Part shown: positions 387 to 6,388 of the stretch, one piece after another
How positions within the stretch are numbered: position 1 is the stretch's first letter
Layout: each line of letters starts with the position of its first letter
Assembly: GCA_046760505.1 (NCBI GenBank)
Contig: JBHIEG010000058.1
Coordinates: 1 to 6,388, forward strand
Direction: 5' to 3'
DNA from: CAYFZR01 sp046760505 [NCBI: Candidatus Hydrothermarchaeota archaeon]
GTDB taxonomy: Archaea; CAYFZR01
Length of the DNA: 6,388 nucleotides
Program-made: the position numbers and the translations under genes
Notes under the pieces: generated by a model
Told to the model about the DNA's origin: nothing
Databases searched by the model: none
The model's input: only the letters and a program-made list of their open reading frames with translations

Positions 387-477
387 TGCCGGGGGCGGGT
401 TTCGAACCCGCGACCTCCAGGTTTCCCAGGAGACTCTCCCTATGAGCCTGGCGCTCCGCCTCCTGAGCTACCCCGGC
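387..477 (-). tRNA. elongator tRNA-Met (anticodon CAT), intron-containing
   Basis: Read on the minus strand from 477: acceptor GCCGGGG (477-471) pairs with CCCCGGC (394-388). The D stem is GCTC/GAGC, the anticodon stem CCAGG (451-447)/CCTGG (421-417), the variable loop AGGTC, and the T stem GCGGG/CCCGC with loop TTCGAAA. The discriminator is A (387) and CCA is not encoded. After removal of an 18-nt intron the anticodon loop is CTCATAA, giving anticodon CAT. The 5' end GCCGGGG is that of archaeal elongator tRNA-Met; archaeal initiators start AGCGGG. A tRNA-Ile2 (CAT modified to lysidine-like agmatidine) is the other CAT reader, but the body matches elongator Met better. A TATA-like box lies about 28 nt upstream. 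Confidence 0.93.
423..440 (-). other. 18-nt tRNA intron at position 37/38 with bulge-helix-bulge
   Basis: The intron is GGGAGAGTCTCCTGGGAA on the minus strand. Loop bases CTCA (446-443, tRNA positions 32-35) pair with intron TGGG (428-425) to make the 4-bp central helix. A 3-nt bulge TAG (442-440) holds the 5' splice site after A441, and a 3-nt bulge AAA (424-422) holds the 3' splice site after A423. The outer intron helix is GGAG/CTCC (439-436 with 432-429) closed by an AGT loop. This is the canonical substrate of the archaeal tRNA splicing endonuclease, and both cuts fall at the expected place in each bulge. The fold was done by hand, but every element fits. Confidence 0.9.
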
Positions 478-1256: not shown

Positions 1257-3206
1257 ATGTTGTACGATATTCCAGGAATTGGTGAAAAGACTTATAATCG
1301 TCTTTTACATTTTTTTGGAGACGAAGAGTCTATATTAAATTGTTTAGAGTCAAAAGATTTGTTTGAATTATCAAAAGTACCAGGAATCAGCCCTAAAAAG
1401 GCATTGGACATCATAAGATTTTATCACCTGAGGAAAAAAGGCAAGTCTTTCCAGCAAATCTTGAGAACATCTTCTAGCGAAATGATGCATGAAAAAATAA
1501 TAACTACCATCGTCTCCTATGCGACATCTCATACAGTAAAAAATCAGTTAAGGCTACTATATCCAACTACAGATATAAAAGAGATTGAAGAAAGAAAAAA
1601 ATATGTTTTAGAAGCAAAAGAATGGGTAAAGAATATAAAAGTAGATAAAGAAGTTTTTAAAAGACTTTTAGAGTGCGATCCAACAAATTTTGTTCTCAAA
1701 GACGACTCTAAGATCTTAATAGCGGATGATCAAGATGTTTACAACTCTTTAGTTGAATACAAAGTATATTGCGATGTTAGGTTCATTGAAGACTCTTCGC
1801 AGCTAGGCGAATTCATAAATAATTATTTCTCCGTCATTTATGTATACAGAAACCCTACGTATGATTTCCTTAGTTCTGTAGAATCTTACAGCCTAGATGA
1901 TTTCTACTTGCCCGAAAAAATACTGACCGAGTTGATAAGGCATCGTACTTTATTTTTAAACGCCATTAGATTGAATGAAACATGTAACACTGATTTTCCG
2001 AATTACGAACATATGATAAGTGAGTTGGATAATATAGGTCATGAAACTGAGGATCTCAAAGAAAAATTGAAAAATATCTGGGAACATGCAAATGAATTAG
2101 AAAAACGTTATAATCAGATCTTAAAAGAAAAGATAGACAAGATAGAGTTAGATAAAGAGGTTTTCCTAGACATGGTTAGAAGAAGTTACGAAGGCTCCAT
2201 TGAGTGGAATTCTGTTCTGCCAGATTTCGTCGAAAAACTGAATAGAGCATGCTCTGATATGGAAGAGGAACTAGTTAGTTATTATGGCGTAATGAACGAT
2301 TTTGAGTTGGTAGAGCGAAGATATCCCATTAGATTCAATCCAGACGCCCTTAGAGAATACGGAAATTTGGTTAGAAAAGAAATTTATCGCCGAGAATCTG
2401 AAGAAAGAAAGAAAATTTCAATGAAATACAAATCAGTACTTGAAGAAATTCCTGATATGTTAAAGAAGATTCATGAATTAGATTTGAAATTTTCGTTGGG
2501 ATGTTTCGCCCTAGATTATGATTTAAGAGACTTTGAATTAAGCGATAAATCTTTAGGATTCAAAAAAGCTAGAAATTTGTATATTGAAAATCCTCAGCCT
2601 ATTGACTATGGAATAGGCGATTACATAGAGCCTAACTCCAAGATAACAGTACTAACAGGTGCCAACAGCGGTGGGAAAACAACCCTCCTTGAAACTCTAT
2701 TGCAGATTCAAATCCTCTCGCAGATGGGTCTCCCAGTTCCATGTGAGCAGGCATCTATAAAGATATTTGATGAAATATACTACTTCGCAAGACATAAGGG
2801 TTCTAGTGATGCAGGAGCGTTGGAAAACTTCCTGAATATGTTAATGCCATTGTTAAAAACAAAAGGGAGTAAACTAATATTGGCAGATGAGATAGAAGCT
2901 GTTACAGAGCCAGGAGCCGCTGCAAAACTTATATCGGGTCTTATAAACTATTTACTTAAAAATAAGGAAACCTACGGAGTTGTGGTAACGCATTTAGGAG
3001 ACGATATCCGAGATAAGGTAAGCGTAAGAATAGACGGAATCGAGGCAGAGGGATTGAATCCAGATCTCAGTTTAAAGGTGGATCATAACCCGAAATATAA
3101 CGTTATCGCAAAGAGTACCCCTGAGTTGATAGTTAGAAAAATGCATGGATTGACCAAAGATTCAACTGAGAAGGAATTCTTGGAGAGTATATTGAATTAC
3201 TTTTGA
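1257..3206 (+). CDS. MutS-family ATPase with N-terminal helix-hairpin-helix (649 aa)
   Basis: The C-terminal third is a MutS/ABC-type ATPase: Walker A TGANSGGKTT (467-476), a signature-like segment HKGSSDAGALENF (513-525), Walker B LILADE with D544 and E545, and a switch histidine H579 in VVVTHLGDD. The N-terminus carries tandem helix-hairpin-helix motifs, IPGIGEKTYNRLL (5-17) and VPGISPKKALDII (41-53), which bind DNA backbone without sequence specificity. The middle (about 260-410) is long, charged helices like the MutS lever and clamp. The mismatch-reading domain I of MutS (Phe-x-Glu motif) is absent, and no Smr nuclease domain follows the ATPase as in bacterial MutS2. It is therefore a MutS-related archaeal protein that probably acts as a dimer on branched or structured DNA, in recombination or repair, and not classical mismatch repair; this role is inferred. 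The ATG at 1257 is supported by the upstream TATA spacing and by the HhH starting almost at residue 1. Confidence 0.9.
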   Translation: MLYDIPGIGEKTYNRLLHFFGDEESILNCLESKDLFELSKVPGISPKKALDIIRFYHLRKKGKSFQQILRTSSSEMMHEKIITTIVSYATSHTVKNQLRLLYPTTDIKEIEERKKYVLEAKEWVKNIKVDKEVFKRLLECDPTNFVLKDDSKILIADDQDVYNSLVEYKVYCDVRFIEDSSQLGEFINNYFSVIYVYRNPTYDFLSSVESYSLDDFYLPEKILTELIRHRTLFLNAIRLNETCNTDFPNYEHMISELDNIGHETEDLKEKLKNIWEHANELEKRYNQILKEKIDKIELDKEVFLDMVRRSYEGSIEWNSVLPDFVEKLNRACSDMEEELVSYYGVMNDFELVERRYPIRFNPDALREYGNLVRKEIYRRESEERKKISMKYKSVLEEIPDMLKKIHELDLKFSLGCFALDYDLRDFELSDKSLGFKKARNLYIENPQPIDYGIGDYIEPNSKITVLTGANSGGKTTLLETLLQIQILSQMGLPVPCEQASIKIFDEIYYFARHKGSSDAGALENFLNMLMPLLKTKGSKLILADEIEAVTEPGAAAKLISGLINYLLKNKETYGVVVTHLGDDIRDKVSVRIDGIEAEGLNPDLSLKVDHNPKYNVIAKSTPELIVRKMHGLTKDSTEKEFLESILNYF

Positions 3207-3330: not shown

Positions 3331-4010
<680 letters not shown>

Positions 4011-4011
<1 letters not shown>

Positions 4012-4020: not shown

Positions 4021-5259
4021 ATGGAACTGGATTTTCTAACACTCGATGACTTGGTGTTAGACAAGCGAGTGGTTTTAGTTAGAATAGATATTAATTCACC
4101 TATAGAACCTGAGACTGGAGAAATACTTGACGATACTAGGCTTAAGAGTCATGCAACCACGATTAAAGATCTTGTAAACGAGAATGCAAGAATAGTTTTG
4201 ATGTCTCATCAAAGCAGACCTGGAAGGGAAGATTTTACTACACTGGAGATTCACGGAAGACATTTGGAAGAAATATTAGACATGCATATTGAATACGTCG
4301 ATGATATATTTGGAAGCAAGGCTAGAGAATCAATAAGGAAGTTAGACCCTGGTGAAGTATTGCTGCTGGAAAACACAAGATTTTACTCTGAGGAAAACCT
4401 CTGCATAGCAAAAAATATGATGAGCTCTACCCACTTTATAAAGAAACTTTCTCCACTGGCTGATTACTTCATAAATGATGCTTTTTCGGCTTCTCACAGG
4501 GCTCATCTGTCTGTAGTAGGCTTTACAACGGTATTACCCTCTGCTGCAGGAAGGGTCATGGAAAAAGAAATCAGAGCACTTGATAGGGTGGTGAAGAATC
4601 CGGAAAGACCTTGTATATTTTTGTTAGGTGGTGTAAAGGCAGATGATTCTTTGAGGGTTATAAGAAACGTTTTGGAGAACGATAAGGCAGATAAAATACT
4701 TACAACAGGAGTTGTGGCTAACATATTCCTGCTAGCCAAGGGAGTAAATATAGGAAAGGCGAACGTGGATTTTATAAGAGAAAGAAAATACGATGGACTC
4801 ATAGAAGAATCAAAGAAGCTTCTAAAAAAATACGGAGATAGAATAAGCACGCCTTATGACCTTGCAATATCGAAGGACGGAGAGAGAGTTGAAGTTCTAT
4901 TTACAGGAGTTCCAGACGATAAGTTGATCCACGACATAGGTTTAGAAACAATATTTCGATATTCTAAGGATATATACGAGGCAAAGACCGTTGTAGCCAA
5001 TGGACCTGCGGGTATTTTTGAAGAAAAAGGATTTGAAATCGGTACGGAAGAACTCATAGGAGCAATAGCTGGTTCGAAAGCTTTTTCTGTAATTGGGGGA
5101 GGACATCTAGTAGCTGTCGCAGAGAACGCAAACGTTAAGGATGAAATATCCCATGTATCTACTGGGGGAGGAGCCTGTATAACATACCTAGCAGGGGAAC
5201 CCCTACCCGGATTAGAAGCATTGAAGGAAGCAGCCCAAAGATTCAAGGTGCCCCGGTAG
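4021..5259 (+). CDS. pgk: phosphoglycerate kinase, archaeal type (412 aa)
   Basis: It transfers phosphate between 1,3-bisphosphoglycerate and ADP to give 3-phosphoglycerate and ATP, in either direction. N-terminal domain signatures for the substrate are present: VLVRIDINSPI (18-28), DDTRLKSH (37-44), SHQSRPGR (62-69), LLLENTRFYSEE (114-125) and the basic-patch segment NDAFSASHRAHLSVVGF (152-168). The nucleotide domain shows GGVKADDSL (203-211), VVANGPAGIFE (324-334), GGGHLVAV (359-366) and STGGGACITYLAGEPLPGLEAL (380-401), the last matching the usual end of the family. The length is normal for archaea, where proteins run about 405-415 aa. The last residues (V410 to R412) and the TAG stop are encoded by DNA that is also the 5' end of tRNA-Thr. 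The gene is in an operon with tpi, nine bases downstream of it. Confidence 0.97.
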   Translation: MELDFLTLDDLVLDKRVVLVRIDINSPIEPETGEILDDTRLKSHATTIKDLVNENARIVLMSHQSRPGREDFTTLEIHGRHLEEILDMHIEYVDDIFGSKARESIRKLDPGEVLLLENTRFYSEENLCIAKNMMSSTHFIKKLSPLADYFINDAFSASHRAHLSVVGFTTVLPSAAGRVMEKEIRALDRVVKNPERPCIFLLGGVKADDSLRVIRNVLENDKADKILTTGVVANIFLLAKGVNIGKANVDFIRERKYDGLIEESKKLLKKYGDRISTPYDLAISKDGERVEVLFTGVPDDKLIHDIGLETIFRYSKDIYEAKTVVANGPAGIFEEKGFEIGTEELIGAIAGSKAFSVIGGGHLVAVAENANVKDEISHVSTGGGACITYLAGEPLPGLEALKEAAQRFKVPR

Positions 5260-5323
5260 CTTAGACAGGTAGAGCGGCTGACTTGTAATCAGCAGGTCGC
5301 GGGTTCAAATCCCGCTCGGGGCT
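5250..5323 (+). tRNA. tRNA-Thr (anticodon TGT)
   Basis: Acceptor GCCCCGG (5250-5256) pairs with TCGGGGC (5316-5322) with one G:T pair. The D arm is GCTT/GAGC, the anticodon stem GCTGA/TCAGC, and the loop CTTGTAA gives anticodon TGT, which reads ACA codons and, with wobble, other ACN codons. The variable loop is AGGTC, and the T arm is GCGGG-TTCAAAT-CCCGC. The total is 74 nt with no intron. Discriminator T73 is usual for archaeal threonine tRNAs, and CCA is not encoded. The first 10 bases overlap the end of pgk on the same strand. No TATA-like box is visible at the expected distance (about 5220-5228) inside pgk, so it may be co-transcribed with tpi-pgk. A broken integrase gene follows 126 bp downstream, so this tRNA gene is a likely past integration site. 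Confidence 0.96.
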
Positions 5324-5449
5324 TAATTCTCTTTTCTCTAGTCTCTAGCTCCTTATTATATTCACTGTTGTTTTCTTCTATGAGACATGATACAATTATA
5401 AAAATGTCTCTTCTTAACTTTAAGCCTCAACTCCGGCTAGAAAAATGAA
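5324..5449. other. spacer between tRNA-Thr and the integrase remnant
   Basis: The first 20 bases after the tRNA are pyrimidine-rich (ttaattctcttttctctag), a plausible archaeal termination site for the tRNA transcript, and contain the short direct repeat tctctag (5334-5340 region and again seven bases on). A small inverted repeat AGCC/GGCT at 5423-5426 and 5435-5438 could belong to the end of the convergent integrase transcript. A 22-codon ORF at 5380-5448 has no ribosome site and is not called. If the element is inserted at the tRNA, its att junction should be at or near the tRNA 3' end. Confidence 0.4.
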
Positions 5450-6388
5450 CTATAACTCTAAAAGTTTCTTTTCTAACCTCAATTTCGTTATTTTATCTAT
5501 TAGGATTTTTTGAACTTCTGGATCTCTAACGAGGATAGACATCAATTCATCAATATTTTTTCTTCTCTCGTCTAGTTCTATGGCAGTTTTAATATCCATA
5601 GCTATTCCACATCTCGTGCAGAATTTTCCAGTAGGAGAATTAAAGTTTTTGCATCTAGGACATTCCTTTGGTTTTAATAATTTTTCTTTCTCGGATGGTT
5701 CTTCTTTTTTCAAACCATGAAGTTTCAATAGAGTATTATCAACATCTCTGCCGCTCATGTGGACATAAATCGAGGGCATATTACTACCCTGCACCCAGCC
5801 AAAGTACTGGTTCATCTGGGCTTCTGTTAAGTAATTGGCCAGATGGGTTACCCTGCTCTTCCTGAAAATGTAGGGATTCAATCTTTTCTTTATTCCTGCC
5901 TTTTTACCAAGCCTTTTGAGCATTACCCTGATATTTGAATAGGTCAAAATTTCGTTCTTGTTTCTTGTCCCTGTCCCAAGCCCCAGAGGAGCGTCCGGAT
6001 TATCTCTTTGCGGATGGACATCCATCTATGCAGCCAATAAAGGAGCTGATGCTATTATCCTCACCTCCTCATGCCTTTGCCGCCACTCACCACAATCTGA
6101 GCTCCGTAGTCATCAAAGGAAACATGTTTGATTGTTAATGTATTCAGCTCAATGATCCTGCAACCGCTCTCGTAGAGGAGTGAAACCAAGGCCTTGTCCC
6201 TCGGGTAGTCAGCGGAGTCTATGAGTTTTTTGACATCCTCTTCTGTTAAAAGTTCTTCCGGTAACAAATTTTTCCGTCTTTTGACTGTTACTTTGATCCA
6301 TTTCACTTCATCGGGGTAATCGTCGGAACCTCTTAACCATTTGAAGAATCTTTTGAGAATCATTTTATAATCATGTTTGGTCCAGTCA
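5450..6388 (-). pseudogene. tyrosine recombinase/integrase, frameshifted and with a nonsense codon (5' end outside window)
   Basis: Two minus-strand frames join into one integrase. The upstream part, open from the window edge (...DWTKHDYKMILKRFFKWL), holds a SAM-like core-binding end and the first catalytic Arg in LLYESGCRIIEL, and ends at a TGA (6063-6061) after GKGMRR. Restoring one G before 6063 continues as VRIIASAPLLAA, then a TAG (6028-6026) where Trp would fit, then MDVHPQRD... The second part carries NPYIFRKSRVTHLANYL (Arg of the HxxR box, with Tyr in the His place), GWVQGSNMPSIYVHMSG with the likely nucleophile Tyr (residue 87 counted from the ATG at 6025), a zinc ribbon (CPRC...CTRC, residues 122-139) and a charged helical tail, ending in TAG at 5450. 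The ATG codons at 6363 and 6025 are internal, not true starts. The frameshift plus nonsense change means no full-length enzyme. The gene converges on tRNA-Thr. Confidence 0.88.

What the first reader, a model, noticed from the sequence alone, without database searches (positions are those of the whole stretch)
5240..5270. pgk stop codon lies inside tRNA-Thr: processing of one transcript would leave pgk without a stop
The tRNA-Thr 5' base is at 5250 while the pgk stop TAG is at 5257-5259, both on the + strand. RNase P cleavage between 5249 and 5250 on a shared transcript would remove the pgk stop, leaving a non-stop mRNA; translation to the stop would occupy the tRNA 5' end. No TATA-like element is seen 25 nt before the tRNA, so co-transcription is plausible. 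One transcript may thus give either a complete pgk message or a tRNA, not both. The conserved PGK core ends before the overlap, so the extra residues K-V-P-R may exist only because the stop was recruited from the tRNA.
Basis: partly seen in the sequence, partly recalled or inferred. Interest (0 to 1): 0.6.

Follow-up and report, generated by a model that had tools for sequence, protein, structure and literature searches.

The report
Enzyme gene's stop codon inside tRNA
In an uncultured archaeon the gene for a sugar-burning enzyme ends on a stop signal that is part of the next gene, a transfer RNA, so cutting out the tRNA would remove the enzyme message's stop; the same kind of overlap was found at an unrelated gene in other archaea, which makes it unusual but not unique.

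Summary
An intact tRNA-Thr(UGU) occupies 5250-5323, and the pgk frame (4021-5259) ends on TAG at 5257-5259: a 10-nt overlap whose stop is the tRNA's U8-A9-G10. Comparison suggests a history. pgk followed on the same strand by tRNA-Thr(UGU) was seen in 34 distinct genomes of one phylum (Methanobacteriota by record titles), with spacers of 34-468 nt; wherever scored, those tRNAs have a BRE/TATA-like promoter. The window has neither spacer nor such an element, so read-through from tpiA-pgk is the likeliest source of the tRNA. The 'extra KVPR' idea is weak: archaeal PGK tails of this length are common without any tRNA. The arrangement recurs. In 5 genomes of that phylum an MBL-fold gene ends on the same U8-A9-G10 of tRNA-Thr(CGU), with ...PR-stop, while relatives keep a spacer. 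tRNA 5' halves often carry stops in upstream frames, so spacer loss can readily yield this overlap. Whether cutting really starves pgk of its stop is untested. I expect translation first, then RNase P cutting, with late ribosomes rescued and a nearly full-length PGK released.

The parts
3337..4011 (+). tpiA (triose-phosphate isomerase), 224 aa, 9 nt before pgk
   Evidence: NF003302 and TIGR00419 over their cut-offs
4021..5259 (+). pgk (phosphoglycerate kinase), 412 aa, stop TAG
4965..4976 (+). best promoter-like string within 400 nt upstream of the tRNA (TAAGGATATATA, score 7.2, 285 nt upstream, inside pgk); a weak candidate only
5188..5218 (+). stretch where the tRNA promoter should start (about -62 to -32); no BRE/TATA-like element, best score -3.6
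5250..5323 (+). tRNA-Thr, anticodon UGU, intact, CCA not encoded
5250..5259 (+). 10-nt overlap of the pgk 3' end with the tRNA 5' end (last base of GTG, then CCC CGG TAG)
5257..5259 (+). pgk stop codon, equal to tRNA U8-A9-G10
5262..5264 (+). TAG closing the second sense frame (tRNA 13-15)
5270..5272 (+). TAG closing the third sense frame (tRNA 21-23)

Best explanation
tpiA, pgk and tRNA-Thr(UGU) form one transcription unit. An ancestral arrangement (pgk, spacer with a tRNA promoter, tRNA-Thr) lost its spacer; pgk then ended on the first in-frame stop it met, the U8-A9-G10 of the tRNA, and the tRNA came to depend on tpiA-pgk read-through. On each transcript ribosomes translate pgk and terminate inside the tRNA sequence, holding its 5' arm open; once they clear it, the tRNA folds, RNase P cuts at 5249/5250 and the pgk message loses its stop. 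Ribosomes still upstream would then run to codon 409 plus two bases and need rescue (archaeal Pelota with ABCE1, recalled), releasing a PGK 3 residues short and within the normal length range. Shown: overlap, synteny with spaced relatives, no promoter-like element, a parallel at an unrelated gene. Inferred: spacer loss as the direction of change, co-transcription, order of events, rescue.
For: Overlap and intact genes. Synteny: of 197 pgk junction rows (the window, 176 archaeal, 20 bacterial), 40 besides the window have tRNA-Thr(UGU) downstream on the same strand within 1 kb: 34 distinct genomes, all from the phylum searched, spacers 34-468 nt; only the window overlaps. tpiA lies within 120 nt upstream of pgk in 38 of 40 loci of that phylum that reach far enough (exceptions L006, L092). 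Promoter: the 37 listed tRNA-Thr(UGU) upstream regions (33 of them pgk-linked) score 6.2-15.4, about 13-15 at -38 in the closest-spaced, against -7.6 for the window (the matrix was trained on a set that includes many of them). Parallel: in 5 of 50 MBL-gene loci examined, 32 of them linked to tRNA-Thr(CGU), the gene ends on U8-A9-G10 with a 10-nt overlap and 7/7 acceptor pairs; 4 of these 5 also score low for a promoter (0.9, 0.5, 0.9, -2.1; the fifth 6.7). Tail length.
Against: No RNA data. A promoter-like string lies 285 nt upstream inside pgk, and 22% of 380 coding stretches of the window score as low as the tRNA's promoter zone, so the low score shows only that nothing promoter-like is there. 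One spaced MBL junction (L314, spacer 25 nt) also scores low (-3.2), so promoter absence does not track overlap perfectly. The window's lineage is unidentified (best PGK identity 56% in 151 and in 392 genomes), so the ancestral state is inferred from distant relatives. Whether the cell has a second tRNA-Thr(UGU) is unknown: no whole genome is held.
Confidence: 0.55

Rival explanations
1. The tRNA has its own start site inside the pgk coding region (for example from 4965-4976, or a promoter type the scan does not model), so pgk mRNAs reading past 5259 and tRNA precursors are mostly different molecules and the conflict hardly arises.
For: Candidate TAAGGATATATA at -285, score 7.2. In the survey some tRNAs close behind genes have strong promoter-like strings inside the upstream gene, e.g. 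L236 (spacer 11 nt, 12.4 at -35) and L228 (spacer 6 nt, 10.5 at -39).
Against: The usual zone is empty by three scorings. The scorings of other tRNAs looked no further than 70 nt upstream, so they say nothing on how often distant promoters serve tRNAs.
Confidence: 0.25
2. A regulatory switch: competition between terminating ribosomes and RNase P on the shared 10 nt sets the balance of PGK against tRNA-Thr and has been selected.
For: The stop codon and the tRNA 5' strand are the same bases; the parallel MBL/tRNA-Thr(CGU) overlap is present in 5 genomes, four of whose proteins are 63-67% identical to the fifth.
Against: 34 of 34 other linked pgk genomes do without it, and the MBL case involves an unrelated gene, so no common target is evident. 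Spacer loss explains both.
Confidence: 0.12
3. Harmless overlap: tRNA maturation from this unit is slow or minor (for example a second tRNA-Thr gene copes), most pgk mRNAs keep their stop and no rescue is needed.
For: Close packing of genes and tRNAs occurs in these genomes (15 ORFs of at least 100 aa end between 39 nt before and 15 nt inside one of 329 tRNAs).
Against: The tRNA is intact and in a position shared with 34 genomes; archaeal genomes usually carry one UGU tRNA-Thr (recalled).
Confidence: 0.08

Closest known systems
tpiA-pgk-tRNA-Thr(UGU) cluster of Methanobacteriota (phylum name from record titles)
   Same: Same gene order, strand and anticodon (34 distinct genomes).
   Different: There tRNA-Pro follows in 34 of 34 genomes, and tRNA-Tyr, -Asp and -Lys were seen in 33, 29 and 26 within the stretch read; the spacer is 34-468 nt with a promoter-like element. 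The window has a 10-nt overlap, no such element, and a decayed integrase behind the tRNA.
MBL-fold gene overlapping tRNA-Thr(CGU) in five genomes (G013-G017) of that phylum
   Same: Stop TAG is tRNA U8-A9-G10, overlap 10 nt, protein ends ...PR.
   Different: Unrelated gene, different isoacceptor; found here, no published description met in my searches.
Animal mitochondrial tRNA punctuation with stop codons reaching into the next tRNA
   Same: tRNA excision cuts the upstream message; a full stop reaching 1-2 nt into the downstream tRNA is proposed as a backup when translation precedes cleavage (PMC1544340, passages read).
   Different: Mitochondria complete the cut T or TA by polyadenylation; here the cut leaves GU of a valine codon, which added A residues would not turn into a stop.

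Membership tests
Archaeal phosphoglycerate kinase | Full-length PGK domain | tested here: met
   PF00162 profile 1-379 of 379, E=5.9e-123
tRNA-Thr(UGU) | Complete cloverleaf with UGU anticodon | tested here: met
tpiA-pgk-tRNA-Thr(UGU) cluster of Methanobacteriota | Gene order, strand and anticodon | tested here: met
tpiA-pgk-tRNA-Thr(UGU) cluster of Methanobacteriota | Spacer with own tRNA promoter | tested here: not met
   overlap of 10 nt; best promoter score -7.6, -3.3, -3.6
tpiA-pgk-tRNA-Thr(UGU) cluster of Methanobacteriota | Window organism belongs to that phylum | tested here: inconclusive
   best PGK identity 56% there and 56% in the sample of the phylum of G005
tRNA punctuation (mitochondrial type) | tRNA excision forms the mRNA 3' end | not testable with these tools
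   needs RNA end mapping
tRNA punctuation (mitochondrial type) | Cut message ends in T or TA that polyadenylation completes | tested here: not met
   cut at 5249/5250 leaves GU of a valine codon

The most novel reading that the evidence does not exclude
Archaeal genes repeatedly borrow their stop codon from the U8-A9-G10 of a following tRNA-Thr, and the shared bases act as a timer: translation protects the tRNA from RNase P, maturation of the tRNA ends the message, and archaea tolerate the resulting stop-less mRNA because rescue frees an almost complete protein, coupling synthesis of a glycolytic enzyme to tRNA-Thr supply.
Probability: 0.12. Interest if true: 0.75.

Novelty: new variant of a known kind. 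Interest (0 to 1): 0.42.

Why it matters
It gives a natural case, in a central metabolic gene, in which tRNA maturation should create stop-less mRNA in an archaeon: a direct test of how ribosomes, RNase P and archaeal rescue share one RNA. It also suggests why such overlaps form: the first 23 nt of this tRNA carry a stop in every frame, and TAG at tRNA 8-10 (or one base on, as where a 5' end is called early) occurs in 237 of 329 surveyed archaeal tRNAs, so tRNA genes can catch upstream genes that lose their stop.

Tried and rejected
Close relatives of the window were not found. The one genome-contig scan gave at best 54% PGK identity, viral contigs gave none, and searches of the phylum of G003 (151 genomes, 144 with a match) and of the phylum of G005 (392 genomes drawn from a larger group, 377 with a match) gave at best 56%. 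Other phyla, Thermococci among them, were not searched.

An integration origin of the overlap was considered: a decayed tyrosine recombinase follows the tRNA. No repeat of the tRNA-Thr 3' part was found in the window beyond its likeness to the other tRNA, and integration at a tRNA 3' end would not alter its 5' end. Rejected as a cause, though the window ends inside the recombinase region.

An RNA structure making the overlap special: folding 5200-5345 gives z = -0.04. Nothing found.

Papers: eight searches answered. Searches returned none. Of the others I saw the listed papers only: 5 of 5, 12 of 19, 15 of 36, 7 of 7, 10 of 63, 12 of 19; no listed title or abstract start described an archaeal or bacterial gene whose stop lies in a following tRNA. 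Passages only were read in PMC3695527, PMC6514570 and PMC1544340.

Limits of the survey: the 329 tRNAs were picked from high-scoring tRNAs of 12 genomes plus pgk-linked loci; at least 226 come from loci of the phylum of G003, so 4 sense overlaps by ORFs of at least 100 aa (L211, L244, L235 by 1 nt, and a doubtful 143-aa frame in L247) is not a rate for archaea. The 21 bacterial loci were left out of it. ARAGORN was run without introns, so intron-bearing tRNAs next to pgk can have been missed there (one search added one in L049, 31.2 bits). ARAGORN called three of the five MBL-linked tRNAs one base early (-11); acceptor pairing gives 10 for all five.

Full report
What is there. The window is a 6.4-kb stretch of archaeal DNA for which no whole genome is held. 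On the + strand tpiA (3337-4011), pgk (4021-5259) and tRNA-Thr(UGU) (5250-5323) follow each other with a 9-nt gap and then a 10-nt overlap. The last pgk codons are GTG CCC CGG TAG; the final G of GTG is tRNA base 1, and TAG is tRNA U8-A9-G10. The tRNA is intact.

Why the stop lies exactly there. U8, A14, G18-G19 and A21 are conserved tRNA positions (recalled), which favours TAG in the 5' half. In this tRNA each of the three sense frames meets TAG within 23 nt. Of 329 distinct archaeal tRNAs, 164 have TAG at called positions 8-10 and a further 73 one base later. All three frames are closed as early as position 31 in only 14 of 329 (without counting TGA-free late frames), so it is the U8-A9-G10 frame, not every frame, that is commonly closed. 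A gene that loses its own stop in that frame in front of a tRNA gene will usually end there.

History. I compared 197 pgk junction rows: the window, 176 archaeal and 20 bacterial, with several rows from the same genomes. Forty besides the window, 34 distinct genomes, all in the phylum searched, have tRNA-Thr(UGU) on the same strand within 1 kb, with spacers of 34 to 468 nt; tRNA-Pro follows in 34 of 34, tRNA-Tyr in 33, -Asp in 29 and -Lys in 26 within the stretch read. None overlaps. Elsewhere a tRNA follows pgk closely in two Micrarchaeota loci (L051 tRNA-Thr(CGU); L049, 31.2 bits). tpiA lies within 120 nt upstream of pgk in 38 of 40 loci of the first phylum that reach far enough. The likeliest reading is that the window holds this cluster with its spacer gone.

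Promoter. I built a BRE/TATA matrix from upstream regions of tRNAs first in their cluster, three times with different sets or zones. (84 regions): the 37 listed tRNA-Thr(UGU) regions, 33 of them pgk-linked, score 6.2-15.4, those with the shortest spacers about 13-15 at -38; the window scores -7.6, lower than all 84. (172 regions): the window scores -3.3, two are lower. (172 regions, zone -62 to -32): the window scores -3.6, 6 of 172 are as low or lower. The matrices were trained on sets that hold many of the compared regions. The window's other tRNA has AAAAAGTATATT at -36, score 7.6, so the organism seems to use this promoter type. As a control, 22% of 380 coding stretches of the window score as low as the tRNA-Thr zone, and by the matrix 5% of 497: the zone looks like ordinary coding DNA. 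In one search's first control all 220 pgk stretches scored at least as high as the zone. The best string within 400 nt is at 4965-4976, 285 nt upstream (7.2).

The C-terminus. After residue 380 the window tail is 32 aa. Among 176 other archaeal rows 73 have 29 or fewer and 51 have 32 or more; L119 and L112 end at the same length with their own stops and no tRNA. The tail length is ordinary; only P, R, the stop and one base of the V codon lie in the tRNA. A product ending at K409 would also be within the natural range.

A parallel case. In the tRNA survey two tRNA-Thr(CGU) genes, in L211 and L244, hold the stop of an upstream MBL-fold gene (PF12706; related to RNase Z models but far below their cut-offs). 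I followed it through the phylum (142 of 151 genomes with a match; junctions of 50 loci, one per genome, examined). In 32 of the 50, tRNA-Thr(CGU) lies downstream (looked for within 600 nt and 900 nt). In five genomes (G013-G017) the gene ends on U8-A9-G10 with ...PR and a 10-nt overlap, all five tRNAs with 7/7 acceptor pairs. The other 27 have spacers of 20 to 397 nt. Promoter scores in the five are 6.7, 0.9, 0.5, 0.9 and -2.1; of six spaced ones scored, five have 4.2-8.4, but L314, spacer 25 nt, has -3.2. The overlap thus occurs at two unrelated genes, in the same tRNA frame, most simply explained by separate origins.

How it most likely works. One transcript carries tpiA, pgk and the tRNA. 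Ribosomes terminate inside the tRNA sequence; when they clear, the tRNA folds and RNase P cuts at 5249/5250. From then on pgk has no stop: the message ends two bases into a valine codon. Late ribosomes would need rescue; Dom34/Pelota-like proteins are reported in all archaeal lineages (PMC6514570, passages read), and archaea are not known to me to use tmRNA. Only the anatomy is shown; co-transcription, order and rescue are inferred.

Compared with what is known. The nearest described situation is in animal mitochondria, where tRNA excision cuts messages, polyadenylation completes T or TA stops, and a full stop reaching into the next tRNA was proposed as a backup when translation precedes cleavage (PMC1544340, passages read). 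Here the cut falls in another phase, so added A residues could not restore a stop. Eight paper searches listed no report of such an overlap in an archaeon or bacterium; that is a narrow search of an open-access library, with capped lists.

Verdict. A real, precisely described overlap, with a likely evolutionary explanation (spacer and promoter loss next to a natural stop) and a parallel at another gene. The stronger claim of a message-or-tRNA switch is open and testable.

Noticed in passing
window 387-477 (-): ARAGORN without introns calls tRNA-Pro(AGG); with introns allowed it splits out an 18-nt intron and calls Ser(CGA). By eye the loop CTCATA suggests an intron-bearing tRNA-Met(CAU) with the intron at the usual 37/38 place; not confirmed.
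   Followed up: partly
window 5450-6387 (-): Tyrosine recombinase matches (PF00589; below its cut-off in the downstream piece) with a weak zinc-ribbon match, split over two ORFs and apparently decayed, right behind the tRNA-Thr. In the related clusters other tRNAs stand there.
   Followed up: partly
window 1257-3206 (+): 649-aa protein with helix-hairpin-helix and MutS-like ATPase domain (PF00488), matching KamC and MutS2 models below their cut-offs.
   Followed up: no
L235, about position 1530 counted on the - strand: A 250-aa frame whose TAG stop ends on the first called base of a tRNA-Arg(UCU): a 1-nt overlap of another kind.
   Followed up: no
L252, L269, L308-L320: In several of these loci the MBL-fold protein upstream of tRNA-Thr(CGU) ends in or near Q-x-x-L-x-x-F/Y, which resembles a PCNA-binding tail (motif recalled); in the overlapping genomes further residues ending in PR follow.
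   Followed up: no
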